64,000 nucleotides of DNA. It comes from Geomonas agri (lineage in GTDB: Bacteria > Desulfobacterota > Desulfuromonadia > Geobacterales > Geobacteraceae). The translations under genes and the position numbers were made by a program. Below are positions 23,547-45,494 of this stretch, piece by piece. How positions within the stretch are numbered: position 1 is the stretch's first letter; every line of letters starts with the position of its first letter. A model generated the notes under the pieces. That model worked only from the letters and a program-made list of their open reading frames with translations. It was not told where the DNA came from and ran no database searches. The DNA is taken from the NCBI RefSeq assembly GCF_020179605.1, contig NZ_JAINZO010000001.1, positions 1,310,396 to 1,374,395 of the forward strand, read 5' to 3'.

Positions 23547-25160
23547 TTGGATCTTTTTTCACTTCAGGGTGAGTCAGGTACTCGCTCTACCCAATCCGAG
23601 AGTCCCAAACCTGCCGCTATGAGTCTGAGAGACGCGCTCCGCGCCGTGCGCCACCCCCTATACCTGGTGCAACGCGACGGTGCACTGGTCCCCGAGCTAG
23701 GCGGCTCCGGAAGTGTCAATTCCTGCGTGGGCTACGCCCCTGCCTGCCTCCCCGAAAACCTGGGCGACCCCTCTTTCTGCCGCGAGATCGGCATCCGTTT
23801 CCCGTACCTGGGAGGCTCCATGGCCAAGGGGATTAGTTCCGCTGCCATGGCCGAGGAACTGGGGCGCGCCGGAATGCTCGGTTTCTTCGGTGCCGCCGGC
23901 CTGCCCATCTCCACGGTGTCCGATACCGCCGACCGCCTCAAGCAGTCCCTGGGTGACATCCCCTACGGCTTCAACCTGATCCACTCCCCGCACGAGCCGG
24001 AATTGGAAAAGGAACTGGCCGAGCTTTATATCCGCAAGGACGTCCGCATCATTGAGGCGTCTGCGTTCCTGGCCCTCACCCTCCCCCTGGTGCGCTACCG
24101 CCTGCACGGCATCAAGCGCGCGGCTGACGGCAGCATCGTCACGCCCAACCGGATTATCGCCAAGGTTTCCCGCGAAGAACTGGCCGCTAAATTCTTTGCG
24201 CCCGCACCGGAGAAGCTCCTGCGCGCCCTGGTGGAGAACGGCTCCATCACCGCCGAACAGGCTGAACTGGCCGCGCACGTGCCCTTGGCGCAGGACGTCA
24301 CCGCCGAGGCTGATTCCGGCGGTCACACCGACAACCGCCCGGCCATGGCCCTCTTCCCGACTATTAATTCCCTCGCGGCACGGCTGGAGCGCCAGTACGA
24401 CTATGACTGCAAGCTTCGCGTCGGCCTCGGCGGCGGCGTTTCCACCCCCGCCTCGGCTGCAGCCGCCTTCGCCATGGGCGCCGCCTACATCATGACCGGG
24501 TCGGTGAACCAGGCCTGTGTCGAGTCCGGCACCTCCGACACCGTGCGCAGCATGCTGGCCGGCACCCGCCAGGCCGACGTTACCATGGCTCCCGCCGCCG
24601 ACATGTTCGAGATGGGCGTCACCGTGCAGGTCTTGAAGCGCGGCACCATGTTCCCGATGCGCGCCGCCAAGCTGTACGAGCTCTACCGCGCCTACGGCAG
24701 CATGGACGAGATCCCCGCCCCGGAGCGTGAGAAGCTGGAGAAAACCATGTTCCTCGCGCCCCTGGAAGAGATCTGGCGCGGGACCCGTGAGTACTTCCTC
24801 AAGCGCGACCCGTCCCAGGTGGAGCGCAGTGAGCGCGACCCGAAACACAAGATGGCGCTGGTCTTCCGGTGGTACCTCGGCATGGGGGCACACTGGGCCA
24901 AGGACGGCATCGAAAACCGGAAAATGGACTACCAGGTATGGTGCGGCCCCGCCATGGGCGCCTTCAACGAATGGGCCGCCGGCTCCTTCCTCGAGGCAGC
25001 CGCCGAGCGCAAGATCGTCACTGTCGCGCTCAACATCCTGCAGGGTGCGGCACACCTGACCCGCGCCAACTTCCTGCGCAGCCAGGGCATTGAGCTGCGC
25101 CTGGAAGAGATCGCACCGCAACCCCTCGAAATCGCTCAAATCAAGGAGTACCTTTGTTGA
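23547..25160 (+). CDS. pfaD: PfaD-like enoyl reductase of a polyunsaturated fatty acid synthase
   Basis: A flavin-dependent enoyl reductase of about 537 residues. The frame opens at GTG 23526, but TTG 23547 has AGGAG eight bases upstream and is the likelier start. PfaD features are clear: the VNSCVGYAPACLPENLGDP opening, the AMAEELGRAGMLGFFGAAG segment, the glycine-rich VGLGGGVSTPASAAAAF phosphate-binding loop of an FMN TIM barrel, and the characteristic AMGAFNEWAAGSF end. It reduces enoyl-ACP intermediates selectively, so some double bases of the chain are kept as cis double bonds. Its stop codon overlaps the pfaA start, so PfaD, PfaA and PfaC are translationally coupled. The 250 bp upstream holds no gene and no clear promoter. 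Confidence 0.93.
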   Translation: MDLFSLQGESGTRSTQSESPKPAAMSLRDALRAVRHPLYLVQRDGALVPELGGSGSVNSCVGYAPACLPENLGDPSFCREIGIRFPYLGGSMAKGISSAAMAEELGRAGMLGFFGAAGLPISTVSDTADRLKQSLGDIPYGFNLIHSPHEPELEKELAELYIRKDVRIIEASAFLALTLPLVRYRLHGIKRAADGSIVTPNRIIAKVSREELAAKFFAPAPEKLLRALVENGSITAEQAELAAHVPLAQDVTAEADSGGHTDNRPAMALFPTINSLAARLERQYDYDCKLRVGLGGGVSTPASAAAAFAMGAAYIMTGSVNQACVESGTSDTVRSMLAGTRQADVTMAPAADMFEMGVTVQVLKRGTMFPMRAAKLYELYRAYGSMDEIPAPEREKLEKTMFLAPLEEIWRGTREYFLKRDPSQVERSERDPKHKMALVFRWYLGMGAHWAKDGIENRKMDYQVWCGPAMGAFNEWAAGSFLEAAAERKIVTVALNILQGAAHLTRANFLRSQGIELRLEEIAPQPLEIAQIKEYLC

Positions 25161-28100
25161 AAACTGATGATCTGAAACCTGCCGTCTCCAGCAACGGAAC
25201 TCAGCTTGCCATCATCGGCATCGGTTGCCTCTTTCCGCAAGCAGCGGATAAAAACGCCTATTGGGCCAACATCAAGGACGGGGTCGACGCCATCACGGAA
25301 GTCCCCTCGACCCACTGGCCGCTGGACGCCTACTACGACGAGGATCAGAAGAGCCCGGACCGTACCTACGGTCGCCGCGGCGGCTTCCTCTCCCCCGTCG
25401 ATTTCAACCCGATGGAATTCAACATCCCGCCCAACGTGCTGGAGGCGATCGACACCTCGCAGCTCTTGGGGCTGGTCGCTGCCGGTCAAGCGCTCAAGGA
25501 TGCCGGTTACGGCCCGGATCGCGCCTTCGACAAGAGCAACGTCTCGGTTATCCTGGGCGTCACCGGTACGCTGGAGCTCGTGATTCCGCTCGGCGCCCGT
25601 CTCGGCCACCCGGTGTGGCGCTCCGCGCTCAAGGATGCCGGCGTCGACGAGGCCACCGCCAAGGACGTGGTCGAGCGCATTTCCGACTCCTACGTTCCCT
25701 GGCAGGAGAACTCCTTCCCCGGCCTTCTGGGCAACGTGGTCGCGGGCAGGATCAGCAAACAGTACGACCTCGGCGGCACCAACTGCGTTGTTGACGCCGC
25801 CTGCGCCAGCTCCTTCAGCGCGCTGCACCTGGCCTCCATGGAACTCATGTCCGGAAAATCGGACATCGTCGTGAGCGGTGGCATCGACACCTTCAACGAC
25901 ATCTTCATGTACATGTGCTTCAGCAAGACCCCCGCCCTCTCCCCCACCGGCAACGCCAAGCCGTTCGACGTCACGGCCGATGGCACCATTCTGGGCGAAG
26001 GCCTCGGCATCGTTGTGCTGAAGCGCCTGGCAGACGCGGAGCGCGACGGCGACAAGATCTACGCGGTGATCCGCGGCATCGGTTCTTCCAGTGACGGCAA
26101 AGGGGACGCCATCTACGCGCCCAGTTCGGCCGGGCAGAAAAAGGCGCTCGTGAACGCCTACAAAAATGCGGATGTCACCCCGGAATCGATCGGGATGCTC
26201 GAAGCGCATGGCACCGGCACCAAGGTTGGCGACGCCGTCGAAGTGAGCGCGCTGCGCGAGGTGTACGGCAAGGCCGAGAACCCGTGGTGCGCCCTCGGAT
26301 CGGTGAAGTCCCAGATCGGTCACACCAAGGCCGCTGCAGGTTCCGCAGGCCTGATCAAGGCGGCGCTCGCACTGCACCACAAGGTGATCCCGCCGACCAT
26401 CAAGGTGCAGACACCGCAGCAAACGGTGATTGGAGACAACTCCCCCTTCTACCTCCCTGCCGGCAAACGTCCCTGGTTCCCCCGTCCCGATGCGCCGCGC
26501 CGCGCGGCGGTCAGCGCCTTCGGTTTCGGCGGCTCCAACTTCCACGTGGTCCTCGAGGAATACTCGCCCAAGAAACAGTGCGTGGACTGGGACGGCAACA
26601 CCCAGATCCTGACCTTCTCCGGCGCTGACGGCGCCGCCTTGGCCGGCAAGCTTGATTCCGTTCCCGCTGATGCCACCTGGGGCGCCCTGCGCGACCTGGC
26701 GCTTGCTTCCCGCACCTCCTTTGACGCCAAGGCCCCCTGCCGTCTCGCGCTTGTCGTTGAGCGTGGCAAGACCAACCTTGCTTCGCTGGTGAAGAACGCG
26801 CGCGCCATGCTGGACAAGAACTCCAAATCCGCCTGGCAGACCCCGGACGGCGCCTACTTCGCCTGCGGCGGTGCGCCCGGCAAACTCGGCATGCTGTTCC
26901 CCGGCCAGGGGTCCCAGTACACCGGGATGCTTAACGATCTCGCCTGCGGTTTCCCGCAGGTGCTGGACGCCGTTGCCGCCGCCAACGAAGGATTTATCAG
27001 CGCCGACGGTAAGTTGCTTTCCGACCTGATCTACCCCCCCTCCGCCTACGATGACGCGACCCGCGCCAGGCAGGAGGAGGAACTGCGCGCCACCCAAGCC
27101 GCCCAGCCCGCCATCGGCGCCACCAGTCTCGGAGTGCTGCGCGTGCTGCGTGACTTCGGCGTGGACGCTGACGCCGTCGCCGGTCACAGCTACGGCGAGC
27201 TCACCGCCCTGTGCGCTGCCGGCAGGCTTGATGAGAACGCGCTGCACGAGCTGTCCCGCCTGCGCGGCGAGCTGATGGGCGCCGGCGCTGGTGACAAGGG
27301 GAGCATGCTGGCAGTGTCCGCACCCCTGGAGAAAATCGCCGAAGCCGTCGCCGCTGAGAAGCTTGATCTGGTTATCGCCAATAAGAACGCCCCTACCCAG
27401 GCCGTCCTTTCCGGAGCTACCGCCGAGATCAAGCGCGCAGTCACTGTCTTCAAGGGGCTCGGCCTCACCTGCAAGGAACTGCCGGTTGCCGCCGCTTTCC
27501 ATAGCGCGCTGGTCGCCGACGCCGCCAAGCCATTCCTGGCCGCGCTGGAAAAGATCGACATGCCGCAGGCGAAGATCCCGGTCTACGCCAACACTACCGC
27601 TGCCGTCTACCCGGCCGACGCGACCGCTGCCAAGGCACAGCTCGCCGCACAGCTCGCCAAGCCGGTCGAGTTTGTCGCCGAGATCGAGGCGATGTACGCC
27701 GCCGGGGTTACCAACTTCGTCGAAGTAGGCCCGGGTAACCGCCTGACCGGCCTCGTCCAGGCTACCCTCGGTAATCGTCCTCACCTCGCTTTCGCCCTCG
27801 ATGCCTCCTCCGGCAAGCGTGGCGGCGTCGCCGACTTGGCCCGCACCGTGGCGCAGCTTGCCGTGCTCGGCTACGACGTCAACCTTGCTCTTTGGGATGA
27901 GGGCCATACGGCCGCCCCGGCACCGACCGGCAAGAAGCCTGCGCTGACCATCCCGTTGTGCGGCGCGAACTACGTGAAGGCCAAGCCTAAGAAGCCGCCG
28001 GTCCAGCCGAAACCTGCTATGGTGGCGGCGCCGCAGGCTCCCGCCGCTCCCGCTGCAGCTCCTGCTGCAGCTCCTGCTGCTTCGGTCCAGGCCGCAGCCG

Positions 28101-31100
28101 TGGCACCGCAAGCTGCCTATCAAAATGCCGTACCCGCAGCGCCTGCCTATCAGCCACAGACTGTCGCTCAGCCGGCTGCTCATGCGACTCTCAACGAGTC
28201 CCTGCGCCTGGCCCGCGAAGGCATGGCCGTCCTGCAGAAGATGCAGGAGGACACCGCGCTGCTGCACCGCCGCTTCCTCGAAGGACAGGAAGCCGCGGCT
28301 AAGACCTTCCAAACACTTCTCGAGCAGCAGCAACGGCTTATCCTGGGCGCACCCATGGCTCCCGCCACCTACGCGGCTCCGACCGCCGTTGCACCGGCCG
28401 CACCCGTTGCCGCCCCGCAGGCTCCCGCTTACGTTGCTCCGGCCGTAGCTGTTGCGGCTCCGGTTGCCGCTCCTGTTGCAGCACCGGCGGTTGCCAAAGC
28501 GGCTCCGTCGCCTGTCGTGGTCGCGCCCGCAGCGCCTGCTGCTCCGAAAGGCGCTGACGCCGGTCACATCACCCAGACCCTGTTGACCGTCATCTCCGAA
28601 AAGACCGGATATCCCATTGAAATGCTTGAGCTGGACATGGGGATGGATTCGGACCTCGGCATCGACTCCATCAAGCGCGTCGAGATTCTCTCCACCTTGC
28701 AGGAGCGCCTCCCCGGCTCCCCCGTGATCGGGCCTGAGCACCTGGGCACCCTGCGCACTCTCGGAGACATCGCCGGACACCTCGCCGCCGGTGCCGTTGC
28801 AACCGCTGACGCTGCGCCTGCCGCTGTCAGCGCTGCCGCGCCTGTTGCCGCTCCGCAAGCCGGTGTCGCCGCTAGCCAGGTAACAGAAACTCTCCTCGCC
28901 GTTGTCAGCGAGAAGACCGGCTACCCGGTGGAAATGCTTGAGCTTGAGATGGGCATGGATTCCGACCTCGGCATCGACTCCATCAAGCGCGTCGAGATCC
29001 TGTCCACGCTGCAGGAGCGCCTCCCCGGCTCCCCCGCTATCGGGCCCGAACATCTCGGTACCCTGCGCACTCTGGGCGATATCGCTGGCCATCTTGCTGC
29101 AGGTGCGGTCTCTGTAACCGCTGCGGCGACCGCTGCTATTGCCGTTGCCGCCCCCGTCGCTGGTATTGGCGCCGCACAGGTGACCGAGACTTTGCTGGCG
29201 GTTGTAAGCGAGAAGACCGGCTACCCGGTTGAAATGCTCGAACTGGAAATGGGCATGGACTCTGACCTCGGCATCGACTCCATCAAACGGGTCGAGATCT
29301 TGTCCACGCTGCAGGAACGCCTTCCCGGTTCTCCCGCCATCGGTCCCGAGCACCTAGGCACCTTGCGTACCCTGGGTGACATCGCCGGGCACCTCGCGGC
29401 GGGCGCGGTTTCGGTAGCGTCCGCAGCTCCGGTAGCAGCGCCACAAGCTGCGGTCGTGGCTCCTGCCGGCGCAGACGTCGCCGCCGTCCTGCTGGAGGTA
29501 GTCAGCGAGAAGACCGGTTATCCCACCGAAATGCTTGAGCTAACCATGGGCATGGACTCCGACCTCGGCATCGACTCGATCAAGCGCGTCGAGATCCTTT
29601 CCACGCTGCAGGAGCGCCTACCGGGCTCGCCGACCATCGGCCCGGAACACTTGGGCACCCTGCGCACCTTGGGTGACATTGCCGGCTTCCTCGGCTCCGG
29701 TTCTGCCGCTGCCCCGGTTGCGGCCGTAGCAGCCCCGGCTGCAACCGCTACGCCGGTTGTTTCCCCTGCTGCCGGCGTCGATCACGCCGCCGTCTGCCAG
29801 GCTCTCCTCGACGTCGTCAGCGACAAGACCGGCTACCCGGCCGAGATGCTGGAACTGACCATGGGCATGGACTCCGATCTCGGCATCGACTCCATCAAGC
29901 GGGTCGAGATCCTTTCCGCCCTGCAGGAGCGCCTCCCGGCCTGCCCGGCCATTGGCCCGGAGCACCTGGGAACCCTGCGTACTTTAGGCGATATCGCCAA
30001 CTTCCTCGCTGGGCCGGCACAGCCTGCTGCTGCAGCTCAGGCCACCCCGGCCGCCCCCGCTGTCGCCGAGATCGCTGCACCTGTCGCTACCGAGGCAGCC
30101 CCTGCCATTGCAGCTGCCGCTCCGGTGGAAAGCCCCGCCCACCCTATCCAGCGCAGTTCAATGATCCCGGTGCTGCTCGGCGACAGCGATGACGATGCCA
30201 TCACCCTCGCCAATGACGGCGAGATCTGGGTTACCGACGACGGTTCCGCATTTGCCGCAGAACTGTGCGGCATCCTGCTTGAACACGGCTGCTCGGTCCG
30301 CAAGGTGAACGCGGCACAGGCACAGCAGATCGCTCCGGCTGGGAAGCTCTCCGGCCTGGTCATCTGCGCGCCGGTGGCCGGTACCGATGACCTCTTCCTG
30401 GAGAACGCTTTCCGGCTGCTTAAGAACGCCGCTGCGGCCTTGGGCGAGTCCGGGCGCGCCGACGGCGCTGTCTGCGTCACCGTTTCCCGCCTGGACGGGG
30501 CCTTCGGCTTCGGTTCCGGCAAGACCTTGAAGGATCCCCTTTCCGGCGCACTGGCCGGTCTCACCAAGACCGCCGCTTTCGAGTGGCCGGAGGTTTCCTG
30601 CAAAGCTATCGACCTGGGCGAGTTCGCCCATCCCGCAGCCGCGGCTGGCGCTGTTGCCATCGAGATGCTGCGTCGCGGCCCGGTCGAGGTCGGCTTAACC
30701 CCGGAAGGTCGCTTTGGCCTGCAGACCGCCGTTCTTCCTGACGCCCCCGCTCCGGTCGATCCAGCCCTGGAGAAGGGTGACGTTGTGGTCATCACCGGAG
30801 GCGGTCGCGGTGTTACCGCCGTTTCGGCGCTGGCACTCGCCAAGGAATACCATCCGTTCCTGGTGCTCCTGGGACGCAGCCCCGAGCCGCAGGAAGAGCC
30901 CGTTTGGCTCACCGGCATCACTGATGAGGCCGAAATCAAGCGCGCCATCATGCAGAACGCCACCGGCAAGCTCCATCCTCGTGAAATCGAGGAGCGTTAC
31001 CGCTCCGTGGTGGCCGGACGCGAACTGCGTGAGACGCTGACCGCCATCGCCGCCACCGGCGCCGAGGCCATCTACCGTTCCGTCGATATCCGTGACCAGA

Positions 31101-32518: not shown

Positions 32519-32520
32519 GC

Positions 32521-35500: not shown

Positions 35501-38500
35501 GCAGCGCCGATGAGCTTGCTTCCCTCTGCCAACAGGGAGAGCGGATTCTACGCTCCGACGCGGCCTACGCGGAGTCGGTGCTGCACCCGTCCCAGCGCGA
35601 TCGCCTCTTCTTCACCGCCAACCCGATTGGCAAAAACGGCAAGATTGGCTTTGTCTACCCCGGTTCCGGCAATCATTTCGCCGGCATGGGAATGGAGCTC
35701 TCCGCCCGCTGGCCGGAGGTATATCGCCGCCAGGACGCTGAGAACCTCTACCTGCGGGAGCAGTTCCAGCCGGAGCAGTTCTGGAACGGCGCGTCCATCG
35801 ACAGCGTGCACGAGAACCATCTCGCCGTGATCTTCGGGCAGGTGGCCACCGGATGCGCCGTGACCGACGTGGTGCAGCGCTTCGGGATCAAGCCCAATGC
35901 GGTAATCAGTTACAGCTTGGGCGAATCCGCCGGGCTCTTCGCCACCCGCACCTGGACCGAACGCGACCTGATGCTCACCCGCATGAAGGCCTCCACCCTG
36001 TTCACCCGAGATCTGGCAGGTGAATGCCGCGCCGCCCGCGAGGCCTGGGGCGAGCCGGACGGGAAGGAGATCAACTGGAGCATCGGCGTCGTGGACGCGC
36101 CCGCGCGCGAAGTGCGCCGCGCCCTCAAGAAAACCAGCCGTGTCTACCTTCTCATCGTCAACACGCCGGACGAATGCGTCATTGGCGGCGACGTGAAGTG
36201 GGTGAAGCATCTGGTGGCCATGCTCGACTGCCGCTTCTTCCCGCTGCAAGGGGTGACCACCGTGCATTGCGAGGTTGCGCGCCAGGTGTCGACCGCCTAC
36301 CGCGACCTGCACGTCTTCAATACCAACCCGCCTGCCGGTGTGACCTTCTACAGCGGCGCAGCCGGGAGTGCCTACCAGGTGAATCGCCGCAGTGCGGCCG
36401 AGTCGATCCTCGCCCAGGCTGTCGAAGGGATTGATTACCCCAAGGTGATCGAAGCCGCCTACGGCGAAGGGATCCGCTACTTCATCGAGATGGGCCCCGG
36501 CGCTTCCTGCAGCCGGATGATCGGGCGCATCCTCAATAACCGTCCCCACGTGGCCCGCTCGGTCTGTCAGCCCGGCACCGACGCCAACTCCGGCTTGTTG
36601 CGGCTTCTGGCACAACTCACCTCAGAGCGCGTTCCGGTCGACCTGGATCCGCTCTTCGTTACCACGCCGGATCTTCCGGTGCAGGCATCGGTACTGGCAT
36701 CCGAGCTTAAAGGGATTCGCTTCTCTACCGGAGGCGCACCCTTCGCGCCGAGCTTGCCGCAGGCCGGACAGGCTGCCCAGGTTACGGTAGTTGCAGCGAC
36801 GTCTGCAGGGGTCAAAGCTCCTGCGGGACCGCATGTAGCGCAGCAGCCTTCAGGGATTCCTGCTCCGGCTACCACCGGTGCGACGGTAATGCCCGGCGTA
36901 AATAATCCGGTAAGTACGACTCAGGAGACAGCGGCTAATGCTGGCTTTACACCCGCTTCTCCGGCTATTGCGACGACAGTTAGCGCTGTTTCTCAATCGG
37001 TCTCCCAGCCGACGCAAAGTGCTGCGCAGTTCAAGGCCGCTCCTGCACCGGTCGCACAGGCTCCCGCTGTAGAACCGGTCGTCGATCCGCTGCTGAGCGA
37101 CTTTGCCCGTGCCCGGGACGCGCACCAGCAGGCCCACGATACTTACCTCCGGGTTGCCAACGACCTGAGCCGGTCCATCGCCGACGCATTGTCGCTGCAG
37201 ATCTCCATCCAGGAGCAGATGCTGGCTGCGGGGATACCGGTTGATCAGGATCTCTTGAACCAGACTGCTTATACTGGGGCAATGGCCGCGGCTGGGGCCA
37301 GCGAAAGGCAAATCCCCTCTGTCTCCCCTTCGCAAAGGGGAGGACGCGAGGCGCGTGCAGCATTTGACGGCGGCAGCGCGGTGGTTCCGACTTCTACTAC
37401 GGCGTCCGCTCCTGCTACGGCTTTGGTGTCTGCTACTGCTCCGGTGCCCGCCCCCTACCCTGGCGCGCTGCCGGCACTGTACGACTACGACATGTGCCTG
37501 GAGTTCGCCATCGGGTCGGTGGCAAAGATGCTCGGACCGGAGTTCGCCGAGGCGGACAGCTACCCGACCAGGGTGAGGCTGCCGGACGTGCCGCTGCAGT
37601 TGGTGCACCGCATCGTGGCGCTCGAGGGCGAGCCAAAATCGATGACCAGCGGCCGCGTGGTCACCCAGCACGATGTTCATCCCGGCGCCTGGTATCTGGA
37701 CGGAAACCGCATCCCGACCTGCATCGCGGTCGAGGCGGGCCAAGCCGACCTGTTCCTGTCCGGCTACCTCGGCATTGACTTCATCACCAAGGGACTCGCC
37801 GTGTACCGGCTCCTGGACGCCGTGGTGACCTTCCATCGCGAGCTTCCCGCGCCGGGAGAGACCATCAATTACGACATCCGCATCGAGCGCTTCTTCCGGC
37901 AGGGCGAGACCTGCCTGTTCCGCTTCCACTTCGAAGCGACCGTGAACGGGCAACCGCTTCTCTCCATGCGCAACGGCTGCGCCGGCTTCTTCTCCCAAGA
38001 GGAACTGGATGCCGGCAAGGGCATCGTCCGCGGCGCCATTGACCTGCGGCCCAAGACAGGTAAGTTGCCGGCTGACTGGCAGTACCTGGTCCCTATGCAA
38101 CCCGCCTCCTACGATGCGCGGCAGTTGGATGCCCTGCGCTGCGGTGACCTCGCCGGATGCTTCGGCCCCCTCTTCTCGGGACTGCCGATCCAGCGCCCGC
38201 TCACAATCCCGGGCGGCAGGATGGAGCTGGTGCATCGCGTCATGGAACTGGTGCCCGACGGCGGCCGCTGCGGACTTGGTTTCATCCGAGCCGAAGCTGA
38301 CATTCACCCGGACGACTGGTTCATCACCTGTCACTTCGTCGATGACCGCGTCATGCCCGGCACGCTCATGTACGAGTGCTGCATGCACACGCTACGCATC
38401 TTCCTGCTGCGTCTGGGCTGGGTCGCCGAGGCCGACGGTGCCGCTTGGCAGCCGGTCCCCGGTGTCGCCAGCCAACTCTGCTGCCGCGGCCAGGTACTGG

Positions 38501-39825
38501 AGACCACCAAGGTGGTGACCTACGAGGTTACGGTGCGCGAATTGGGCTATCGCCCCGAGCCGTACGCCATCGTCGACGCGCTGATGTACGCCGACGGCAA
38601 GCCGATCGTCGAAATCACCAACATGTCCGCGCGCCTGACCGGCACCAACCGTGAAGCATTGCTTCAACTGTGGCAGCGTAACAGGACGCAATCGCACAAC
38701 GTTACTCCTGCTGTCGTGCAGGTACCCGCCTATGACCAAAAGCCGGCCATCTACACCAAACAGCAGATCCTGGCCTACAGCAACGGCAATCCTTCTGAAG
38801 GGTTCGGCGACCGTTACAAGGTCTTCGACAACGAGAGGAAGATCGCCCGCCTCCCCGGACCGCCGTTCCAGTTCATGGACCGCGTCACCGGCATCAAAGG
38901 CGAGCCGTGGCAGATGGTGCCGGGCGCCATGGCCGAGGCGCAGTACGACATCCCGGTGGACGAGTGGTATTTTGCCGCCGACCGTCAGCCGCGCATGCCC
39001 TTCGCCGTGCTCCTGGAAGCCGCTTTGCAGCCCTGCGGTTGGCTGGCAGCCTACGTCGGTTCTGCGCTTACCAGCCCGACCGACATCTCCTTCCGCAACC
39101 TCGGTGGGACCGCGGTCCAGCATCGCCCGGTGACGCCGGACAGCGGCACGCTGACTGCCACGGCTACCCTCACCAAGGCGGCCACCAGCGGCGGCATGAT
39201 CATCCAGGAGTTCGACTTCTCGGTGGCCGACCGCCACGGTGTGTTGTACGAAGGCGACACCATGTTCGGTTTCTTCGCCAAGGAGGCGCTGGCCAACCAG
39301 GTGGGGATCCGTGAAGCGGTTCCGTACATCCCGAGCGCAGAGGAAGCCGGCCGTGGCCGGTCGATCCCCTACCCCGAGCAGCGTCCTTTCCCTGACAAGA
39401 TGCTGCGCATGATCGACAGGATCGACCTGTATGTTGCTGATGGCGGCCCGGCCGGCCTTGGCTATATCAGGGGAACAAAGACGGTCGTCACTGAGGATTG
39501 GTATTTCAAGGCCCATTTCTATGAAGATCCTGTCACGCCGGGGTCGTTGGGGCTCGAATCGTTCCTGCAGTTGATGAAGTTTGCGGCCGTTGAGCGCTGG
39601 GGCTGGAACGAAGGTGATACTGTCGCTGCCGTGGCCCTGGAGCGCAAGCACCGCTGGCTCTACCGCGGCCAGGTGGTGCCGACCGACAAGGAAGTCACGG
39701 TCATGGCCTGGATCACCGCCGTCGATGACGCCAACCGCGTCCTTACCGCCGCAGGCTTCCTGTACGTTGACGGGCGGGCCATTTACCAGATGAACGACTT
39801 CACCGTGCAACTCGGACGAGGCTAA
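32521..39825 (+). CDS. pfaC: PfaC-like synthase with a built-in PfaB-type acyltransferase: KS-CLF-AT-four hotdog domains
   Basis: A 2434-residue subunit. Ketosynthase (about 6-455; Cys193, His327, His365). A second KS fold (about 460-920) lacks the nucleophile: the site reads MSSEESSG, with Glu664 near the cysteine position, so it is a chain length factor. An acyltransferase (about 1041-1365; Ser1132 in SYSLGES) is of PfaB type. A low-complexity linker (about 1400-1640) precedes four FabA-like hotdog folds (about 1655-1835, 1895-2060, 2110-2260, 2285-2434). Folds 2 and 4 carry the catalytic pattern (HFVDDRVMPGTLMYE and HFYEDPVTPGSLGLE); folds 1 and 3 do not. The terminal AGPAT domain remembered from myxobacterial Pfa3 is absent. 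ATG starts 2 nt after pfaA. Confidence 0.94.
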   Translation: MKQQSPSVAIVGLGGIFPDAPELTTFWENIRNAKSAAREVPAGRWALAADAAFHPEAGKPDHVYSKRGCFIDSLPPLSSLSGLHIDSKLADGLDPAFQLLLHAGKRAFDSAVTAKLDRSRIGVIIGNLALPSEKSAELSRALLGRTFEEKLLGHAGNDPIPNPLNRYVAGLPAGLLAAALGLGGGCSTLDAACASSLYAIKLACDELLSGRADAMLTGGLSRPDPLYTQMGFAQLRALSRRGICSPFDASGDGLVVGEGAGIFVLKRLDDAIAQGDRIYGVIKGIGLSNDVGGSLLAPMADGQLRAMRSAYEKAGWQPQDVDLIECHATGTPVGDATEVGSLRELWGDVSGKGCVIGSVKSNIGHLLTAAGSAALTKVLLAMAEETLPPTANFKQAPENFRLEESPFKVLQGATPWQRRADGVPRRAAVSAFGFGGINAHLLVEEWLPSGASAVAAEPPKKGGPVAVVGLDARFGKWQDLKSFQSRALGGDTGAKTSQPKDWWGAEQSAWFATEKLKDTPFSGYYLDEFAQPTDQFRIPPKELEEMLPQQLLMLQSAAAAIKDAGMDRADNLCAGVFVGIALDLNSTNFAFRWTIADKAKAWARQLGLKLSPEQLEQWVEQLRDQAGPALTANRTMGALGSVVASRVAREFRCGGPSFTMSSEESSGLRALETAVRQLQSNEIDRAIVGAVDLAGDFRAVIGQHLNRPYSGFGSATPFDQSADGTVVGEGAATVILKRLEDAERDGDRIYAVIGGVGSASGEVMLPGVPAYRHALERAYGEAEVAPASIGLIEAHGSGNAAEDRMEAAALTEFFDEPGPAAQSRRLPVASVKADIGHTGAASGLASLVRGCLALYQEIIPGTRSGERPVSQLSGNGALFLPNGSRYWLRNRSEGARHAGVSVFGVDGSVSHVVLQGYENVPERTAVERVAPLAGWDEFLFSVTGADRQELADGVRQLRETAEKRPAPDMAVLSRRVCKESSASGAPLAVSMVARSADELASLCQQGERILRSDAAYAESVLHPSQRDRLFFTANPIGKNGKIGFVYPGSGNHFAGMGMELSARWPEVYRRQDAENLYLREQFQPEQFWNGASIDSVHENHLAVIFGQVATGCAVTDVVQRFGIKPNAVISYSLGESAGLFATRTWTERDLMLTRMKASTLFTRDLAGECRAAREAWGEPDGKEINWSIGVVDAPAREVRRALKKTSRVYLLIVNTPDECVIGGDVKWVKHLVAMLDCRFFPLQGVTTVHCEVARQVSTAYRDLHVFNTNPPAGVTFYSGAAGSAYQVNRRSAAESILAQAVEGIDYPKVIEAAYGEGIRYFIEMGPGASCSRMIGRILNNRPHVARSVCQPGTDANSGLLRLLAQLTSERVPVDLDPLFVTTPDLPVQASVLASELKGIRFSTGGAPFAPSLPQAGQAAQVTVVAATSAGVKAPAGPHVAQQPSGIPAPATTGATVMPGVNNPVSTTQETAANAGFTPASPAIATTVSAVSQSVSQPTQSAAQFKAAPAPVAQAPAVEPVVDPLLSDFARARDAHQQAHDTYLRVANDLSRSIADALSLQISIQEQMLAAGIPVDQDLLNQTAYTGAMAAAGASERQIPSVSPSQRGGREARAAFDGGSAVVPTSTTASAPATALVSATAPVPAPYPGALPALYDYDMCLEFAIGSVAKMLGPEFAEADSYPTRVRLPDVPLQLVHRIVALEGEPKSMTSGRVVTQHDVHPGAWYLDGNRIPTCIAVEAGQADLFLSGYLGIDFITKGLAVYRLLDAVVTFHRELPAPGETINYDIRIERFFRQGETCLFRFHFEATVNGQPLLSMRNGCAGFFSQEELDAGKGIVRGAIDLRPKTGKLPADWQYLVPMQPASYDARQLDALRCGDLAGCFGPLFSGLPIQRPLTIPGGRMELVHRVMELVPDGGRCGLGFIRAEADIHPDDWFITCHFVDDRVMPGTLMYECCMHTLRIFLLRLGWVAEADGAAWQPVPGVASQLCCRGQVLETTKVVTYEVTVRELGYRPEPYAIVDALMYADGKPIVEITNMSARLTGTNREALLQLWQRNRTQSHNVTPAVVQVPAYDQKPAIYTKQQILAYSNGNPSEGFGDRYKVFDNERKIARLPGPPFQFMDRVTGIKGEPWQMVPGAMAEAQYDIPVDEWYFAADRQPRMPFAVLLEAALQPCGWLAAYVGSALTSPTDISFRNLGGTAVQHRPVTPDSGTLTATATLTKAATSGGMIIQEFDFSVADRHGVLYEGDTMFGFFAKEALANQVGIREAVPYIPSAEEAGRGRSIPYPEQRPFPDKMLRMIDRIDLYVADGGPAGLGYIRGTKTVVTEDWYFKAHFYEDPVTPGSLGLESFLQLMKFAAVERWGWNEGDTVAAVALERKHRWLYRGQVVPTDKEVTVMAWITAVDDANRVLTAAGFLYVDGRAIYQMNDFTVQLGRG

Positions 39826-39840
39826 CCCATCGTCCGCACT

Positions 39841-40117
39841 CCCTCTCCCCCCGGGAGAGGGCTGGGGTGAGGGTGCTGCAACCAGCAACCACCTCACTTC
39901 GTAGCATCGCCCTCACCCGCCCTCCGGGCACCCTCTCCCAATGGGCGAGGGGATGGGCAATGCAGGTTGAATGGTGGCAGATCATGGCAGCTCTCATGTC
40001 CAAACTCCCTCTCCCCCCGGGAGAGGGCTGGGGTGAGGGCGCTGCAAGTAGCAGCCACCTCACTTCGTGGCGTCGCCCTCACCCGCCCTTCGGGCACCCT
40101 CTCCCAATGGGCGAGGG
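39841..40117. repeat. Duplicated 111-bp intergenic repeat between pfaC and oleA
   Basis: Two direct copies, 39841-39951 and 40007-40117, differ at seven of 111 positions by eye. Each begins with the self-complementary CCCTCTCCCCCCGGGAGAGG and contains GGTGAGGG paired with CGCCCTCACC further on, so each copy can fold into a branched hairpin. A shorter relative occurs at 63281-63303. This looks like a REP/BIME-type dispersed element. The rest of the 398-bp gap (39826-40223) holds two CCTCTGTGG motifs near 40160-40185 and no gene. Confidence 0.85.
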
Positions 40118-40223
40118 AATGGTCAAGGCGTCTAACAATTTTATTCTCTGTGCCCTCTGTGGACCTCAGTGTCCTCTGTGGTCATGCTTTCAGGTTTTAC
40201 GCATTCAATTCTTAAGGTGCTAG

Positions 40224-41267
40224 ATGAAGTATTCCAAGGTATATATCGAATCTTTCGGTTACGAACTCGCTCCGGTGGTGGTCACCTCGGACGAGCTCGA
40301 GGCGCGGCTGGAGCCGCTTTACAAGACGCTGCACTTCACCCCGGGACAACTGCAAGCCCTGACCGGGATCCGCGAGCGCCGCTGGTGGGAGCCGGGCTTC
40401 CAGCTCTCCAAGGGCGCCATCGCCGCCGGGAAAAAGGCTCTGGCAACAGCCGGTATCTCCCCCAACGAGATCGGTGCCCTGCTCTACACCGGCGTCTGCC
40501 GTGAGCGCTTCGAACCTGCCACCGCCTGCCGCGTCGCCGCCGGCCTTGGCGTCTCGGGCAACGCCGCCGTGTATGATCTTTCCAACGCCTGCCTGGGCGT
40601 CCTGAACGGTATCCTCGAAGTCGCCAACCGCATCGAGCTGGGCCAGATCCGCGCCGGCCTTGTGGTCTCCTGTGAGAGCGCACGCGACATCAACGACGTC
40701 ATGATCGCCAAGATGCTGGAAGACCGCAGCATGGAGAACTTCGCCAGCTCGCTCGCTACCCTCACCGGCGGCTCGGGCGCGGTGGCGGTGCTTCTTACCG
40801 ACGGCTCCTTCTCCAAGTCCGGCCGCAGGCGGCTGCGCGGCGGCATCGCCCAAGCGGCGCCGGAACACCACGGCCTCTGCCTCTGGGGCATGACTCCGGA
40901 CGGCAAGGGTGGCTATGAGCAATCGATGAGTACCGACGCGGTGAGCGTCATGAACTACGGCGTGGAACTGGGACGCCGCACCTGGGATGAGTTTCTCCCC
41001 GAGGTGGGCTGGCGGGAGACCGATGTTGACCGCGTCATCTGCCACCAGGTGGGGAGCGCGCACCAGAGCGCCATCCTGAAAACTCTCGGCATCTCGCTGC
41101 ACAAGGACTTCACCAGCTACGAATTTCTGGGCAACATGGGGACCGTCTCCCTGCCCCTTACCGCAGCGCTGGCCGACGAGCGCGAGGTCCTTTCCGCCGG
41201 CGACAGGGTGGCCCTTTTGGGTATCGGAAGCGGCCTTAACTGCCTGATGCTTGGAGTGGACTGGTGA
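40224..41267 (+). CDS. oleA: OleA: thiolase-fold enzyme for head-to-head acyl-CoA condensation
   Basis: A 347-residue thiolase-superfamily protein. The catalytic triad is readable: Cys123 (SNACLGVLNG), His274 (ICHQVGSAH) and Asn304 (FLGNMGTVS). The FEPATAC stretch just before carries the glutamate expected to act as base in OleA. OleA joins two activated fatty acids by a non-decarboxylative Claisen reaction to a 2-alkyl-3-ketoacid. Its place right after a Pfa synthase indicates that at least one substrate is a polyunsaturated acyl chain, as established for Shewanella. The start ATG 40224 has a weak AAGG site. It overlaps oleB by 4 nt. Confidence 0.96.
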   Translation: MKYSKVYIESFGYELAPVVVTSDELEARLEPLYKTLHFTPGQLQALTGIRERRWWEPGFQLSKGAIAAGKKALATAGISPNEIGALLYTGVCRERFEPATACRVAAGLGVSGNAAVYDLSNACLGVLNGILEVANRIELGQIRAGLVVSCESARDINDVMIAKMLEDRSMENFASSLATLTGGSGAVAVLLTDGSFSKSGRRRLRGGIAQAAPEHHGLCLWGMTPDGKGGYEQSMSTDAVSVMNYGVELGRRTWDEFLPEVGWRETDVDRVICHQVGSAHQSAILKTLGISLHKDFTSYEFLGNMGTVSLPLTAALADEREVLSAGDRVALLGIGSGLNCLMLGVDW

Positions 41268-42166
41268 GAGACGCAGTGAAAAAATATTACCCCTTCACCG
41301 GCCGCACCCTCAACCTCGACGGCCTCGCCTACCACTACCTCGACGAGGGGACCGGCGCGCCGGTGGTCATGGTGCACGGCAACCCGTCCTGGTCCTTCTA
41401 CTACCGGAACCTGGTGCTGGCGCTGCGCGACAACTACCGCTGCATCGTGCCCGATCACATCGGCTGCGGCTTCTCGGACAAGCCGGGCGACGACCGCTAT
41501 GACTACACCCTTTCGCGCCGCATCGACGACCTGGAGCGCCTGATCGACTCGCTCGACCTGCAGGGGAAGATCACCCTCGTGGTGCACGACTGGGGCGGAA
41601 TGATCGGCATGGGGTACGCGAGCCGCCACCCGGAGCGCATCGGCCGTATCGTGGTGCTCAACACCGCAGCCTTCCATCTCCCCAAGGAGAAGACCTTTCC
41701 GCTGGGACTGAAAATCTGCCGTGACACCATGCTCGGCACCCTGCTGGTGCGCGGCTTCAACGCCTTCAGCGTCGGCGCCTCCATAGTCGGCTGCAAGAAG
41801 AACCCGATGTCGCAGGAGCTGATGCAGGCGTACCGCGCTCCCTACGACTCTTGGCAGAACCGGATCGCGACGCTGCGCTTCGTGCAGGATATCCCGCTTG
41901 CTCCCGGCGACCGCGGCTACGACGTGGTGAGCGAGATCGCTGACGGACTCGATCGCTTCCGCGACCTTCCCATGGCCATCTTCTGGGGCGAGCTCGACTT
42001 CGTGTTCGACACCACCTTCCTGGCCGAGTGGCTGCGCCGCTTCCCCAAGGCACAGGTGAAGAGCTACCCTGACGCCGGGCATTACATCCTCGAAGACATG
42101 AAAGATGAAGTTGTGCCGATGATCGTCCAGTTCCTGCATCAGACCGAGCCCCAGGAGACTGCCTGA
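41264..42166 (+). CDS. oleB: OleB: alpha/beta hydrolase, beta-lactone decarboxylase
   Basis: A 300-residue alpha/beta hydrolase of the haloalkane-dehalogenase-like subgroup. The oxyanion region is HGNPSWSFYYRN, and the nucleophile is Asp109 in VHDWGG rather than serine. The catalytic histidine lies in DAGHYILED near residue 273. In Ole pathways this enzyme converts the beta-lactone made by OleC to a cis-olefin and CO2. GTG start overlaps the oleA stop (GTGA), and oleC begins 3 nt after oleB. Confidence 0.94.
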   Translation: MRDAVKKYYPFTGRTLNLDGLAYHYLDEGTGAPVVMVHGNPSWSFYYRNLVLALRDNYRCIVPDHIGCGFSDKPGDDRYDYTLSRRIDDLERLIDSLDLQGKITLVVHDWGGMIGMGYASRHPERIGRIVVLNTAAFHLPKEKTFPLGLKICRDTMLGTLLVRGFNAFSVGASIVGCKKNPMSQELMQAYRAPYDSWQNRIATLRFVQDIPLAPGDRGYDVVSEIADGLDRFRDLPMAIFWGELDFVFDTTFLAEWLRRFPKAQVKSYPDAGHYILEDMKDEVVPMIVQFLHQTEPQETA

Positions 42167-42169
42167 CCG

Positions 42170-43819
42170 ATGGCCGAGACCGAATTCGTCAACATTGCCG
42201 CGCACCTGCCGGAGATGGCCCGGCGTCAGCCGGACACCAGGGCGATCATCTTCCCCAAGGGGAAGCGGAGCCTCACCTTCGGCGAGTTGAACAGCCTGAG
42301 CGACAAGATCGCGCGCGGGCTGATCGCCAACGGCATCCGCAGCGGCGTGCGCACCGTGCTCATGGTGACGCCGAGTCCGGAATTCTTCGCCCTCACCTTC
42401 GCTCTCTTTAAGGTGGGCGCGGTGCCGGTGCTGATCGACCCGGGCTTGGGGATCAAGAACCTGAAACAGTGCTTCTCCGAGGCGGAGCCGCACGCCTTCA
42501 TCGGCATTCCCAAGGCGCATATCGCCCGGAAACTCTTCGGCTGGGGCAAGGAGAGCATCCGCACCTGCGTTACCGTGGGCCCGCGCCTGTTCTGGGAAGG
42601 GACCACGCTGGCCAGGATCATCGCGGAGCAGCAGGACGACACCCCGTTCACCCTCGCCCCGACCCAAAAGGATGACGTCGCTGCCATACTCTTTACCAGC
42701 GGCAGCACCGGCATCCCCAAGGGGGCCATCTACAGCCACGGCAACTTCTCCGCACAGGTGCAGGCGCTCAAAGAGGTCTACGGCATTGAACCGGGTGAGA
42801 TCGATCTCCCGACCTTCCCGCTGTTCGCCCTGTTCGCTCCCGCGCTGGGCATGACCGCGGTGATCCCGGAGATGGACTTTACCCGTCCCGGTTCGGTCGA
42901 TCCGCGCAAGATCGTAGGGCCCATCAACGAGTACGGCGTGACCACCATGTTCGGCTCCCCCGCGCTCATCAATCGGGTGGGACGCTACGGCGTGGAGCAC
43001 GGCGTGAAACTGCCGACCCTGCGCCGCGCCATCTCGGCCGGTGCGCCGGTGCCGGCCTCAGTCCTGGAACGCTTCACCAGCCTCCTCAATCCCGGCGTCC
43101 AGGTTTTCACCCCCTACGGCGCCACCGAGGCGCTCCCAGTCTGCTCCATCGGCAGCACCGAAATCCTGCAGGAAACCCGCAAAATCACCGATGCCGGCGG
43201 CGGAGTCTGCGTCGGCCGTCCCGTGGAAGGGATCCGCCTGGAGATCATCCAGATCACCGACAACCCCATCTATGGCTGGGACGATCTGCTGCGCGTTCCC
43301 ACCGGTAAGATCGGCGAGATCGTGGTGCAGGGTGAACAGGTGACCCGCGGCTACTACAACCGCCCTGAATCCGACCACCTCTCCAAGATCATCGATCCGG
43401 CCACCGGCTCCTTCTTTCACCGCATGGGCGACCTGGGCGGCAGGGACGAGGATGGACGCGTCTGGTTCTGCGGGCGCAAGTCGCACCGCGTCGAGACCGA
43501 GGGAGGTCCCCTCTATACCATTCCCTGCGAGGCCGTCTTCAACACCCACCCCGCCGTGTTCCGTAGCGCCCTCGTGGGCGTCGGCGAGCCGGGTGCCCTC
43601 ACGCCGGTGATCTGCATCGAACTGGAGAAGAACGTCAAGGTCGACCAGGAACAGATCCGCAAGGAGCTTAAAGCACTGGCGGAGGAGCATATCCACACCC
43701 GCTCCATCGAGACCATCCTGTTCCATCCGGCCTTCCCGGTGGACATCCGGCACAACGCCAAGATCTTCCGGGAGAAGCTGGCGGTCTGGGCCGCGGAGAG
43801 CCTGAAATGCGCGCGCTAG
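42170..43819 (+). CDS. oleC: OleC: ATP-dependent beta-lactone synthetase
   Basis: A 549-residue ANL-superfamily enzyme. Motifs: FTSGSTGIPKG phosphate loop, FTPYGATEALP, and a C-terminal hinge at MGDLGGRDEDGRVWFCGR. It lacks the usual CoA-ligase wording around the hinge, as OleC proteins do. In the Ole pathway it adenylates the 2-alkyl-3-hydroxyacid from OleD and closes it to a beta-lactone. The assignment rests on the family and on its place between oleB and oleD. It overlaps oleD by 13 nt. Confidence 0.94.
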   Translation: MAETEFVNIAAHLPEMARRQPDTRAIIFPKGKRSLTFGELNSLSDKIARGLIANGIRSGVRTVLMVTPSPEFFALTFALFKVGAVPVLIDPGLGIKNLKQCFSEAEPHAFIGIPKAHIARKLFGWGKESIRTCVTVGPRLFWEGTTLARIIAEQQDDTPFTLAPTQKDDVAAILFTSGSTGIPKGAIYSHGNFSAQVQALKEVYGIEPGEIDLPTFPLFALFAPALGMTAVIPEMDFTRPGSVDPRKIVGPINEYGVTTMFGSPALINRVGRYGVEHGVKLPTLRRAISAGAPVPASVLERFTSLLNPGVQVFTPYGATEALPVCSIGSTEILQETRKITDAGGGVCVGRPVEGIRLEIIQITDNPIYGWDDLLRVPTGKIGEIVVQGEQVTRGYYNRPESDHLSKIIDPATGSFFHRMGDLGGRDEDGRVWFCGRKSHRVETEGGPLYTIPCEAVFNTHPAVFRSALVGVGEPGALTPVICIELEKNVKVDQEQIRKELKALAEEHIHTRSIETILFHPAFPVDIRHNAKIFREKLAVWAAESLKCAR

Positions 43820-44799
43820 TCACCGGGGGAGGAGGCTTTCTCGGCTCCGCTATCGTAAGGCAGTTGCGCGCCCGCGGCGACGAGGTCGTCAGTTTCTCGC
43901 GTGGTGACTATCCCGAACTTGCCGCGCTTGGTGTCGAGCAGCGTCGCGGTGACCTCTCCGACCTGAACGCCGTGGTCGAGGCGGCACAAGGGTGCGACAT
44001 TGTCTTTCACATGGCCGCCAAGGCCGGGATTTGGGGCGACTTCCAGGAATATTACTTGGCCAACGTCGTCGGCACCGAGAACGTGATCGCCGGCTGCCGC
44101 ATCCTCGGCATCAGGCGCCTGGTCTACACCAGTTCACCGAGCGTTGTTTTCGACGGCTCCGACGTCGAGGGCAGCGACGAGTCGCTCCCCTACCCCGCCC
44201 ACTTCGAGGCGCCCTACCCGCACACCAAGGCGCTCGCCGAAAAGGCGGTGCTCTCCGCCAACTCGCGCACCCTGTCTACCGTGTCTCTGCGGCCTCACCT
44301 GATCTGGGGGCCCAATGACAACCACCTGGTGCCGCGCATCGTCGCCAAGGGACGTGCCGGCGCTTTGAAACGCATTGGCACCCGATCCTGCCTGGTGGAC
44401 ACGGTCTACGTGGAGAATGCCGCCGAAGCGCACCTGAACGCGGCCGACCGCCTCAGCGCCGATGCCCCGCTCGCCGGAAAGGCCTACTTCATCTCCAACG
44501 GTGAGCCGATAGCCCTGTGGGACATGGTTAACGCCATCCTCGCTGCCGCCGGTGTCCCACCGGTCACCCGCACCATCCCTGCGGGGGTGGCGTACGCCGC
44601 CGGGGTCGCCTGTGAAATGGCATGGAAAACGTTGCGGCTGTCCGGCGAACCTCCCATGACCCGTTTCGTTGCCAAGGAGCTCGCCACCTCCCACTGGTTC
44701 GACATCTCTGCGGCCCGCAAGGATCTCGGCTACTCACCGCGGATCTCGACACAGGAAGGGCTGCGGCTGCTGCGCGCTTCGTTCGAGGCCGGGGCTTGA
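43807..44799 (+). CDS. oleD: OleD: NAD(P)H-dependent 2-alkyl-3-ketoacid reductase
   Basis: A 330-residue extended short-chain dehydrogenase. The nucleotide-binding VTGGGGFLGSAI starts at residue 4, and the catalytic Tyr-Lys pair is in YPHTKALAEKA, with Ser-containing YTSSPSVVFDG before it. It reduces the OleA product before lactone formation. The relatives include 3-beta-hydroxysteroid dehydrogenase/isomerase-like proteins, but the complete oleABCD context makes the OleD call firm. Its stop TGA overlaps the following TTG start. Confidence 0.94.
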   Translation: MRALVTGGGGFLGSAIVRQLRARGDEVVSFSRGDYPELAALGVEQRRGDLSDLNAVVEAAQGCDIVFHMAAKAGIWGDFQEYYLANVVGTENVIAGCRILGIRRLVYTSSPSVVFDGSDVEGSDESLPYPAHFEAPYPHTKALAEKAVLSANSRTLSTVSLRPHLIWGPNDNHLVPRIVAKGRAGALKRIGTRSCLVDTVYVENAAEAHLNAADRLSADAPLAGKAYFISNGEPIALWDMVNAILAAAGVPPVTRTIPAGVAYAAGVACEMAWKTLRLSGEPPMTRFVAKELATSHWFDISAARKDLGYSPRISTQEGLRLLRASFEAGA

Positions 44800-45494
44800 A
44801 CCCGATCCCCGGATTGGAGGCGGTGCGAGCTCACTACCGGCTCGAACCGCTGCAGCGCCCGGAGCACGAGAAGAAGCGCCTTGTCGGATTTTTAAGCGAA
44901 AGCGAACTACAACGCGGTGCGAGGCTGCTTGATAGCATCAAGCGCGAAGAGTTCCTGGTTGGACGGGGGCTGCTGCGGGAAATCCTGGCTGGCCTCACCG
45001 GCGAGGAACCGGGACGCCTCCAGTTTGCGGAGGGAGAGTTCGGGAAGCCGTATCTAAAGGGCTGCCAAGGCTACGAAAGCTTGCGCTTCAATGTTTCCCA
45101 TGCTGGCGGGCAGCTGCTGGTAGCGGTGTGTTACGGCGTCGAGATAGGGGTAGACCTGGAAGAAGTGCGGCAGGATCTGGCGTTTCGTCCCATGGCGGAG
45201 CGCTATTTTTCTGTGCGTGAGCGTGAAGAGCTGTTCGGGTTGGAGCCGCGGCAGCAACTGGAAGCGTTCTATCGGTGCTGGACTAGGAAGGAAGCCTACA
45301 TGAAGGCCATCGGGAGCGGCTTCTCCCAACCCTCCACCGGCTTCGACGTGTCGCTGCGGCCGGGCCAACCGGCGATCTTCCTTGGCCATGCCTCCGTCCC
45401 CACCGAGGCCAATCGCTGGCGCATTCAGGACCTGGCGGTCCCAGCCGGGTATTGCGCCGCGCTGGCGGTTTTCACCCCTTACCCTTCCCCCTAA
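44796..45494 (+). CDS. pfaE: Sfp-type 4'-phosphopantetheinyl transferase (PfaE role)
   Basis: A 232-residue enzyme that loads phosphopantetheine on carrier domains. Core motifs: FNVSHAGG, EIGVDLEE and WTRKEAYMKAIGSG. TTG 44796 is chosen as start because GAGG lies seven bases upstream and it overlaps the oleD stop; the frame itself is open back to 44622. Its obvious targets are the five carrier domains of PfaA. Being last in the pfa-ole series, it completes the enzyme set. Its 3' end overlaps the convergent toxin-like gene by 23 nt. Confidence 0.93.
   Translation: MNPIPGLEAVRAHYRLEPLQRPEHEKKRLVGFLSESELQRGARLLDSIKREEFLVGRGLLREILAGLTGEEPGRLQFAEGEFGKPYLKGCQGYESLRFNVSHAGGQLLVAVCYGVEIGVDLEEVRQDLAFRPMAERYFSVREREELFGLEPRQQLEAFYRCWTRKEAYMKAIGSGFSQPSTGFDVSLRPGQPAIFLGHASVPTEANRWRIQDLAVPAGYCAALAVFTPYPSP

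What the first reader, a model, noticed from the sequence alone, without database searches (positions are those of the whole stretch)
23547..45494. A coupled omega-3 synthase and OleABCD locus: a near self-contained polyene-hydrocarbon factory
Nine consecutive plus-strand genes (pfaD, pfaA, pfaC, oleA, oleB, oleC, oleD, PPTase, with TesA/ABC genes just before) have overlapping or near-zero spacing except at the pfaC-oleA gap. Seen: intact active sites in every enzyme. Known: Shewanella uses Pfa products in OleABCD to make a C31 polyene, and pfa-ole linkage has been reported in other lineages. Inferred: here the polyunsaturated chain goes chiefly to a hydrocarbon, because no AGPAT domain or other lipid-loading domain is attached to the synthase. 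This is the most system-like region in the window.
Basis: partly seen in the sequence, partly recalled or inferred. Interest (0 to 1): 0.75.

Follow-up and report, generated by a model that had tools for sequence, protein, structure and literature searches.

The report
Known Geobacter polyene-hydrocarbon gene cluster
This is a complete gene cluster that very probably builds an unsaturated fatty chain and joins two of them into a long hydrocarbon; the same gene order and its product are already published for a close relative, so it is ordinary for this group of iron-reducing soil bacteria.

Summary
Eight plus-strand genes, pfaD-pfaA-pfaC-oleA-oleB-oleC-oleD-PPTase (23547-45494), lie 3 bp apart or less or overlap, except for a 398-bp gap before oleA. 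The genome is Geomonas-like. This matches the "Type I" pfa-like cluster that Shulse & Allen (2011) described in Geobacter and already proposed to feed OleABCD. The same gene order and its product, hentriacontanonaene (C31:9), are reported for Geobacter (Geomonas) bemidjiensis. It is therefore not new.

What I add: in 141 genomes of the order, PfaD and OleA are both found in 90, PfaD alone in 5, OleA alone in 1. In all 66 genomes with both on one contig they share a strand and lie 14.0-16.6 kb apart. In 21 of 71 relatives pfaC and oleA overlap by 4 bp; here the gap holds two copies of a dispersed repeat. TesA and the ABC genes are probably neighbours, not parts.

Its conclusion gets better support from published Geomonas fatty-acid tables, which list no polyunsaturated acid apart from one ambiguous C18:2 DMA alternative.

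The parts
23547..25160 (+). pfaD: enoyl reductase of the Pfa synthase (TTG start at 23547 with GGAG upstream; the reading frame opens with GTG 23526)
   Evidence: TIGR02814 623.9 bits, cut-off 449; sequence at the start
25154..32518 (+). pfaA: KS-MAT-5xACP-KR-PKS_DH
   Evidence: TIGR02813 1869 bits, cut-off 1010; Pfam domains (PKS_DH_N there is below its cut-off); five LGIDSIK motifs
32521..39825 (+). pfaC (pfaB-C fusion): KS-CLF-AT-four FabA-like units (b and d with His/Glu, a and c without the motif His)
   Evidence: Pfam; PfaB_fam match at residues 1028-1379, below its cut-off; residues in relatives
39826..40223 (.). pfaC-oleA gap: two 132-bp copies (91% alike) of a dispersed genomic repeat, then a second tract and the oleA ribosome-binding site
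   Evidence: 51 core matches in the genome with up to 2 mismatches, 0 in the control
40224..41267 (+). oleA: thiolase that condenses two acyl chains head to head
   Evidence: NF006720 500 bits, cut-off 285; aligned over nearly full length to 3fk5 with the NACL cysteine kept
41264..42166 (+). oleB: beta-lactone decarboxylase (haloalkane-dehalogenase-like fold)
   Evidence: dehalogenase models below their cut-offs; motif VHDWGG; place between oleA and oleC
42170..43819 (+). oleC: beta-lactone synthetase
   Evidence: NF006754 793 bits, cut-off 478; NF045785/NF045786 about 689 bits, below their cut-offs of 850 and 900
43807..44799 (+). oleD: 2-alkyl-3-oxoalkanoate reductase
   Evidence: NF042422 465 bits, below its cut-off of 580; YPHTKA motif
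44796..45494 (+). Sfp/HetI-type PPTase (PfaE role); the only PF01648 match of this genome besides one in a 142-aa frame (AcpS-like by size)
   Evidence: PF01648 and NF042922, the latter below its cut-off; own-genome search; FNVSH, GVDLE, WxxKEA motifs

Best explanation
[quoted passage not shown] PfaA, PfaC and PfaD, activated by the cluster's own PPTase, build a polyunsaturated acyl chain on the ACPs of PfaA (inferred to be 16:4n-3, as predicted for Shewanella). OleA takes two such chains from the ACPs and condenses them head to head. OleD reduces the keto acid, OleC closes a beta-lactone and OleB decarboxylates it, giving a C31 nonaene as the main product. Shown here: the genes, domains, conserved residues, spacing and joint conservation. 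Published for the close relative G. bemidjiensis: the same gene order and C31:9. Inferred: the identity of the chain and of the product in this strain, and transfer from ACP to OleA (supported in E. coli with Shewanella genes).
For: All families identified. PfaD and OleA (OleA at E <= 1e-60) both found in 90 of 141 genomes of the order, PfaD alone 5, OleA alone 1, neither 45; all 66 pairs on one contig share a strand, 13,964-16,575 bp apart (from; two weak PfaD rows dropped: G021's only hit and G075's second). pfaC and oleA overlap by 4 bp in 21 of 71 relatives and are at most 12 bp apart in 41 of 71. 34 of 80 loci hold oleA, B, C, D and the PPTase in this order. PfaC and OleA distances agree (Mantel r 0.92 over 69 rows, 0 of 500 permutations as high). 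G. bemidjiensis: same order and C31:9. OleA mediates the link in vivo in Shewanella-derived systems. Geomonas fatty-acid tables.
Against: No chemistry from this strain. The AT domain fused to PfaC keeps its Ser and His in 70 of 70 sequences and could release free PUFA. The fatty-acid tables report only acids at or above 0.5% or 1%, contain unidentified peaks and, in one table, a summed feature that may be C18:2 DMA. Photobacterium profundum SS9 has pfa and ole operons side by side yet makes no detectable hydrocarbon, so linkage does not prove production. OleC and OleD score below the strict NCBIfam equivalog cut-offs, and no OleB-specific model was hit. 24 of 90 genomes have PfaD and OleA on different contigs.
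Confidence: 0.88

Rival explanations
1. Dual-use synthase: the chain goes in substantial part, or mainly, into phospholipids or free acids through the AT domain and ordinary acyltransferases, with hydrocarbon as a side product, as EPA and C31:9 coexist in Shewanella pealeana.
For: AT with Ser1132 and His1249 in 70 of 70 sequences; AT domains of eukaryotic PUFA synthases release free fatty acid (PMC9702510); six PlsC-family places in the genome; S. pealeana makes both EPA and C31:9.
Against: No polyunsaturated acid, apart from an ambiguous C18:2 DMA alternative in one summed feature, in the published tables of three Geomonas strains and of four Geomonas strains plus G. bemidjiensis (one strain is in both); near-constant joint presence with OleA.
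Confidence: 0.2
2. Two independent pathways that merely sit side by side: OleABCD uses ordinary type II fatty acids, and the Pfa synthase makes a separate lipid.
For: In Xanthomonas and Stenotrophomonas Ole uses type II chains; 24 of 90 genomes have PfaD and OleA on different contigs, though each of these assemblies has 40 or more contigs.
Against: Constant order, strand and distance in 66 of 66; 4-bp gene overlaps; C31:9, not a type II olefin, reported from G. bemidjiensis.
Confidence: 0.05
3. TesA (22642-23295) and the ABC pair are working parts of the factory (chain release or export).
For: TesA adjoins pfaD in 7 of 7 same-genus loci, and part of the FtsX gene is seen in 5 of these 7, within about 1.5 kb upstream.
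Against: TesA is not found in the 1.5 kb upstream of pfaD in L005 and L006 of another family of the order; TesA begins with a signal-peptide-like segment (by eye), so it is probably periplasmic; TesA next to a YbbA/YbbP-like ABC pair is a common housekeeping arrangement (recalled).
Confidence: 0.07

Closest known systems
[quoted passage not shown] review PMC4882568)
   Same: Gene order pfaD, A, B, C, oleA, B, C, D, pfaE in tandem; pfaBC fusion in Type I; same family (the species was placed in Geomonas in PMC6773877, and is Citrifermentans in NCBI)
   Different: Only details found: a repeat-filled pfaC-oleA gap, and SYSLG for GYSLG in the AT motif. The G. bemidjiensis sequence itself was not compared; the nearest named stand-in was C. 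bremense L016
Shewanella pfaABCDE plus oleABCD, making hentriacontanonaene (PMC6463001)
   Same: Same enzymes and pathway logic; OleA is thought to take chains from the Pfa ACPs
   Different: There pfaB is a separate gene (recalled), EPA also enters phospholipids and a pfaT thioesterase is needed for full yield; here the AT is fused in PfaC and no PF03061 or PF13279 thioesterase match lies in the window
Myxobacterial PUFA synthases with fused AGPAT
   Same: pfaD first and fused PfaC with an AT (arrangement recalled; AGPAT mentioned in PMC9702510)
   Different: No AGPAT domain here; not tested by tree

Membership tests
Type I pfa-like cluster (Shulse & Allen 2011) | fused pfaBC gene | tested here: met
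   KS, CLF, AT and FabA-like units in one gene; the AT scores 33.5 against a Pfam cut-off of 32.7 when its segment is scanned alone, below it in the whole protein
Type I pfa-like cluster (Shulse & Allen 2011) | KS phylogeny groups with the Geobacter, Pelobacter and Desulfuromonas members | tested here: inconclusive
   No KS tree with the paper's own sequences. A PfaC C-terminus + OleA tree places the window among Geomonas and next to Citrifermentans
Type I pfa-like cluster (Shulse & Allen 2011) | PPTase nearby with PUFA-type motifs P0 hRxhLS, P1a x(G/D)xP, P1b (F/S)NxSH (reported feature, not stated as defining) | tested here: inconclusive
   P1a and P1b found, P0 not found by strict pattern; P0 also not found in 30 of 34 relatives' PPTases, so the strict pattern may be narrower than the paper's alignment
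PfaA/PfaD families (TIGR02813, TIGR02814) | score over the curated cut-off | tested here: met
   1869 against 1010 and 624 against 449 bits
OleABCD olefin pathway | all four genes present with catalytic motifs | tested here: met
   motif roles recalled; oleB by fold family, motif and position only
NCBIfam equivalog models of OleC and OleD | score over the curated cut-offs | tested here: not met
   OleC 689 against 850/900, OleD 465 and 435 against 580 bits; these models carry Shewanella and Xanthomonas names or labels, and the broader NF006754 is passed (793 against 478)
OleABCD olefin pathway | olefin produced by the strain | not testable with these tools
   no chemistry; reported for G. bemidjiensis
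AGPAT-bearing myxobacterial PUFA synthase | AGPAT domain on PfaC | tested here: not met
   no PF01553 hit on PfaC at E 0.001

The most novel reading that the evidence does not exclude
In the Geobacterales the Pfa synthase has become a dedicated hydrocarbon synthase: OleA, whose gene overlaps pfaC in many relatives, is its normal off-loading enzyme, essentially no PUFA reaches the membrane lipids, and the fused AT domain serves another role (for example proof-reading), its first GxSxG glycine having changed in Geomonas.
Probability: 0.35. Interest if true: 0.4.

Novelty: already known. Interest (0 to 1): 0.15.

Why it matters
It settles that the "factory" is a published, widespread trait of this order and not a new system. 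Because pfa and ole are so tightly joined here, and the fatty-acid tables read show no clear PUFA, this group would be a clean place to test what C31:9 does for a strict anaerobe, a question for which the PMC4882568 review says there is no direct evidence.

Tried and rejected
A new kind of linkage: rejected, as gene order and product are published for a close relative. The absent AGPAT as proof of hydrocarbon fate: rejected as reasoning. A linked pfaT-like thioesterase: none of the 10 PF03061 or 3 PF13279 places in the genome lies in the window. Separate promoter or terminator in the pfaC-oleA gap: the simple scan found none, which says little for this organism. Loss of OleC where the locus does not show it: 20 of 20 genomes searched still hold OleC; 11 of these 20 are genomes whose locus showed no oleC, 9 had it in the locus, and other loci without oleC were not searched. 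A common inserted gene between oleB and oleC in relatives: the reading frames there look different from locus to locus (12 loci, by eye). Papers: none found with both Geomonas and hydrocarbon biosynthesis; Geobacter with hentriacontanonaene only in PMC3098273 and PMC4882568; the primary report of C31:9 in G. bemidjiensis (Sukovich 2010) is not held, so that claim rests on these two later papers.

Full report
What is there. The window lies in a 4.68-Mb genome. Its nearest named relatives in genome contigs are Geomonas species: the best PfaC segment is 92% and OleA about 100% identical to G. azotofigens Red51 by tblastn (records of the window's own genome may be left out there). Eight plus-strand genes run from 23547 to 45494: pfaD, pfaA (KS-MAT-5 ACP-KR-DH), pfaC (KS-CLF-AT-FabA-like units), oleA, oleB, oleC, oleD and a PPTase. 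Gaps are -7, 2, 398, -4, 3, -13 and -4 bp.

Domain details. PfaC has four FabA-like units when its C-terminal part is scanned in pieces. Units b and d keep the His and Glu (70 of 70 full-length sequences). Units a and c lack the motif His in the window; the commonest strings of the relatives look the same. The first KS keeps its cysteine in 67 of 70, with gaps in the other three; at the motif site of the CLF there is S in 65 and N in 5. The AT keeps Ser1132 and His1249 in 70 of 70. The first Gly of GxSxG is G in 61, S in 8 and T in 1; the nine exceptions are the window and eight Geomonas loci. These 70 are the window and 69 of 80 loci; 11 loci with shorter frames were left out. OleA aligns over nearly its whole length to 3fk5 with the cysteine kept. 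The roles of most motifs are recalled; PfaD was not examined by motif.

PPTase. The genome has two PF01648 matches: one in a 142-aa frame, AcpS-like by size, and this one. The cluster's PPTase is thus the likely activator of the five ACPs (inference).

Conservation. In 141 genomes of the order (the window's own included), PfaD is found in 96 at E 0.001 and OleA in 91 at E 1e-60. After dropping two weak PfaD rows (the only hit of G021, and a second hit of G075), PfaD stands in 95: both genes in 90, PfaD alone in 5 (G012, G085, G100, G112, G126, each with 170 or more contigs), OleA alone in 1 (G087), neither in 45. Of the 90, 66 have both on one contig, always on the same strand, 13,964-16,575 bp apart; 24 have them on different contigs, which I did not resolve into assembly breaks or true separation. 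Of 80 loci found by the PfaC C-terminus (the best 80 of 240), 71 show OleA; of the other nine, seven end within about 0.4 kb of pfaC, L046 has about 1.3 kb left and L087 about 4 kb without OleA. In 34 of 80, oleA, B, C, D and the PPTase follow in this order; many of the others are cut by a contig end. Two of 71 have a larger pfaC-oleA gap (L083 7.2 kb, L089 2.2 kb).

The gap. In 21 of 71 relatives pfaC and oleA overlap by 4 bp, and in 41 of 71 they are at most 12 bp apart (starts taken as homologous to the window's oleA start). In the window the 398-bp gap holds two 132-bp copies, 91% alike, of a repeat whose core occurs 51 times in the genome, against 0 for the reversed control pattern. Of eight related loci compared (L011-L017, L073), L013, L014 and L015 hold a copy and L012 a part. 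L011, L016 and L017 have gaps of 183-314 bp without it, and L073 has about 50 bp. More distant Desulfuromonadales such as L071, L072, L075 and L080 also have gaps of 159-290 bp, so the tight overlap may be a later state. The repeat explains much of the window's gap, not all long gaps, and whether it splits the transcript is unknown.

What is known. Shulse & Allen 2011 (PMC3098273; outline, sections 7, 8 and 10 and passages seen) class Geobacter clusters as Type I with a pfaBC fusion, state that G. bemidjiensis makes hentriacontanonaene, and propose that Type I feeds the ole pathway. The review PMC4882568 (passages) gives the tandem order pfaD, A, B, C, oleA, B, C, D, pfaE in G. bemidjiensis with C31:9. 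Allemann 2019 (PMC6463001; parts 1-4 of 5 read) shows with Shewanella genes in E. coli that OleA links the pathways. G. bemidjiensis was placed in Geomonas (PMC6773877, passages). The window is therefore a plain relative of a described system.

Fate of the chain. It is missing, but PMC9702510 (passages) describes the fused AGPAT as special to myxobacteria and the AT domain as the releasing thioesterase in eukaryotic synthases, with a promiscuous AT in P. profundum. The AT is present and its Ser and His are kept here, and six PlsC-family places exist elsewhere in the genome. The stronger hint is chemical: fatty-acid tables of three strains (PMC8516083, passages) and of five strains including G. 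bemidjiensis (PMC6773877, passages; one strain in both) list chains of C13 to C18 and no polyunsaturated acid, apart from a summed feature that may be C18:2 DMA. Minor or unidentified peaks are not excluded. Against a simple rule, P. profundum SS9 has adjacent pfa and ole operons but no detectable hydrocarbon.

Neighbours. TesA precedes pfaD in 7 of 7 same-genus loci among the ten best PfaD loci; it is not found within the 1.5 kb seen upstream in L005 and L006 of another family, nor by the distant PfaD copy L001. It starts like a secreted protein (by eye). I count it as a neighbour. Downstream of the PPTase lie two minus-strand frames without Pfam match and an OmpH-like gene.

Side result. OleC does not follow the rest of the cluster: PfaC against OleA, OleB and OleD distances give r 0.92, 0.85 and 0.86 (69, 64 and 46 rows), against OleC only 0.62 (51 rows). 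In an OleC tree 19 of 51 rows form a clade with support 100/100 on a long branch, but on a PfaC+OleA tree these 19 fall in several places (4 changes, at least 3 forced by well-supported branches; quick method, a long branch present). OleC seems to have been replaced more than once in the order. The window's OleC lies outside that clade.

Noticed in passing
L021, L022, L026, L028, L033, L037, L038, L042, L045, L051, L052, L054, L057, L062, L063, L066, L068, L076, L078: A second OleC type (61-66% to the window's OleC, while OleA is 76-80%) forms one clade but sits in several places on the PfaC+OleA tree, suggesting repeated replacement of oleC inside a conserved operon.
   Followed up: partly
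39826-40223: Dispersed repeat of about 132 bp, core found 51 times in the genome with up to 2 mismatches; two copies fill much of the pfaC-oleA gap.
   Followed up: partly
L001 (G050:C1:3671000-3672313): One same-family genome has a second, distant PfaD (42% to the window's) about 1.3 Mb from its pfa-ole cluster; its neighbourhood was not read.
   Followed up: no
L091 (G000:C2:763600-783500): A second cluster with six ketosynthase hits, a PlsC-type and a 4HBT hit lies elsewhere in the genome, perhaps aryl-polyene-like (guess); it may share the only Sfp-type PPTase.
   Followed up: no
48842-50296: DUF3443 similarity stops after model position 57 of 367 at the end of one reading frame; the gene may be truncated or frameshifted.
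   Followed up: no
L042, L053, L054, L069, L070, L032, L061: In several relatives other reading frames separate oleB from oleC, or oleC and oleD are not seen in the locus, yet OleC is found in 20 of 20 genomes searched.
   Followed up: partly
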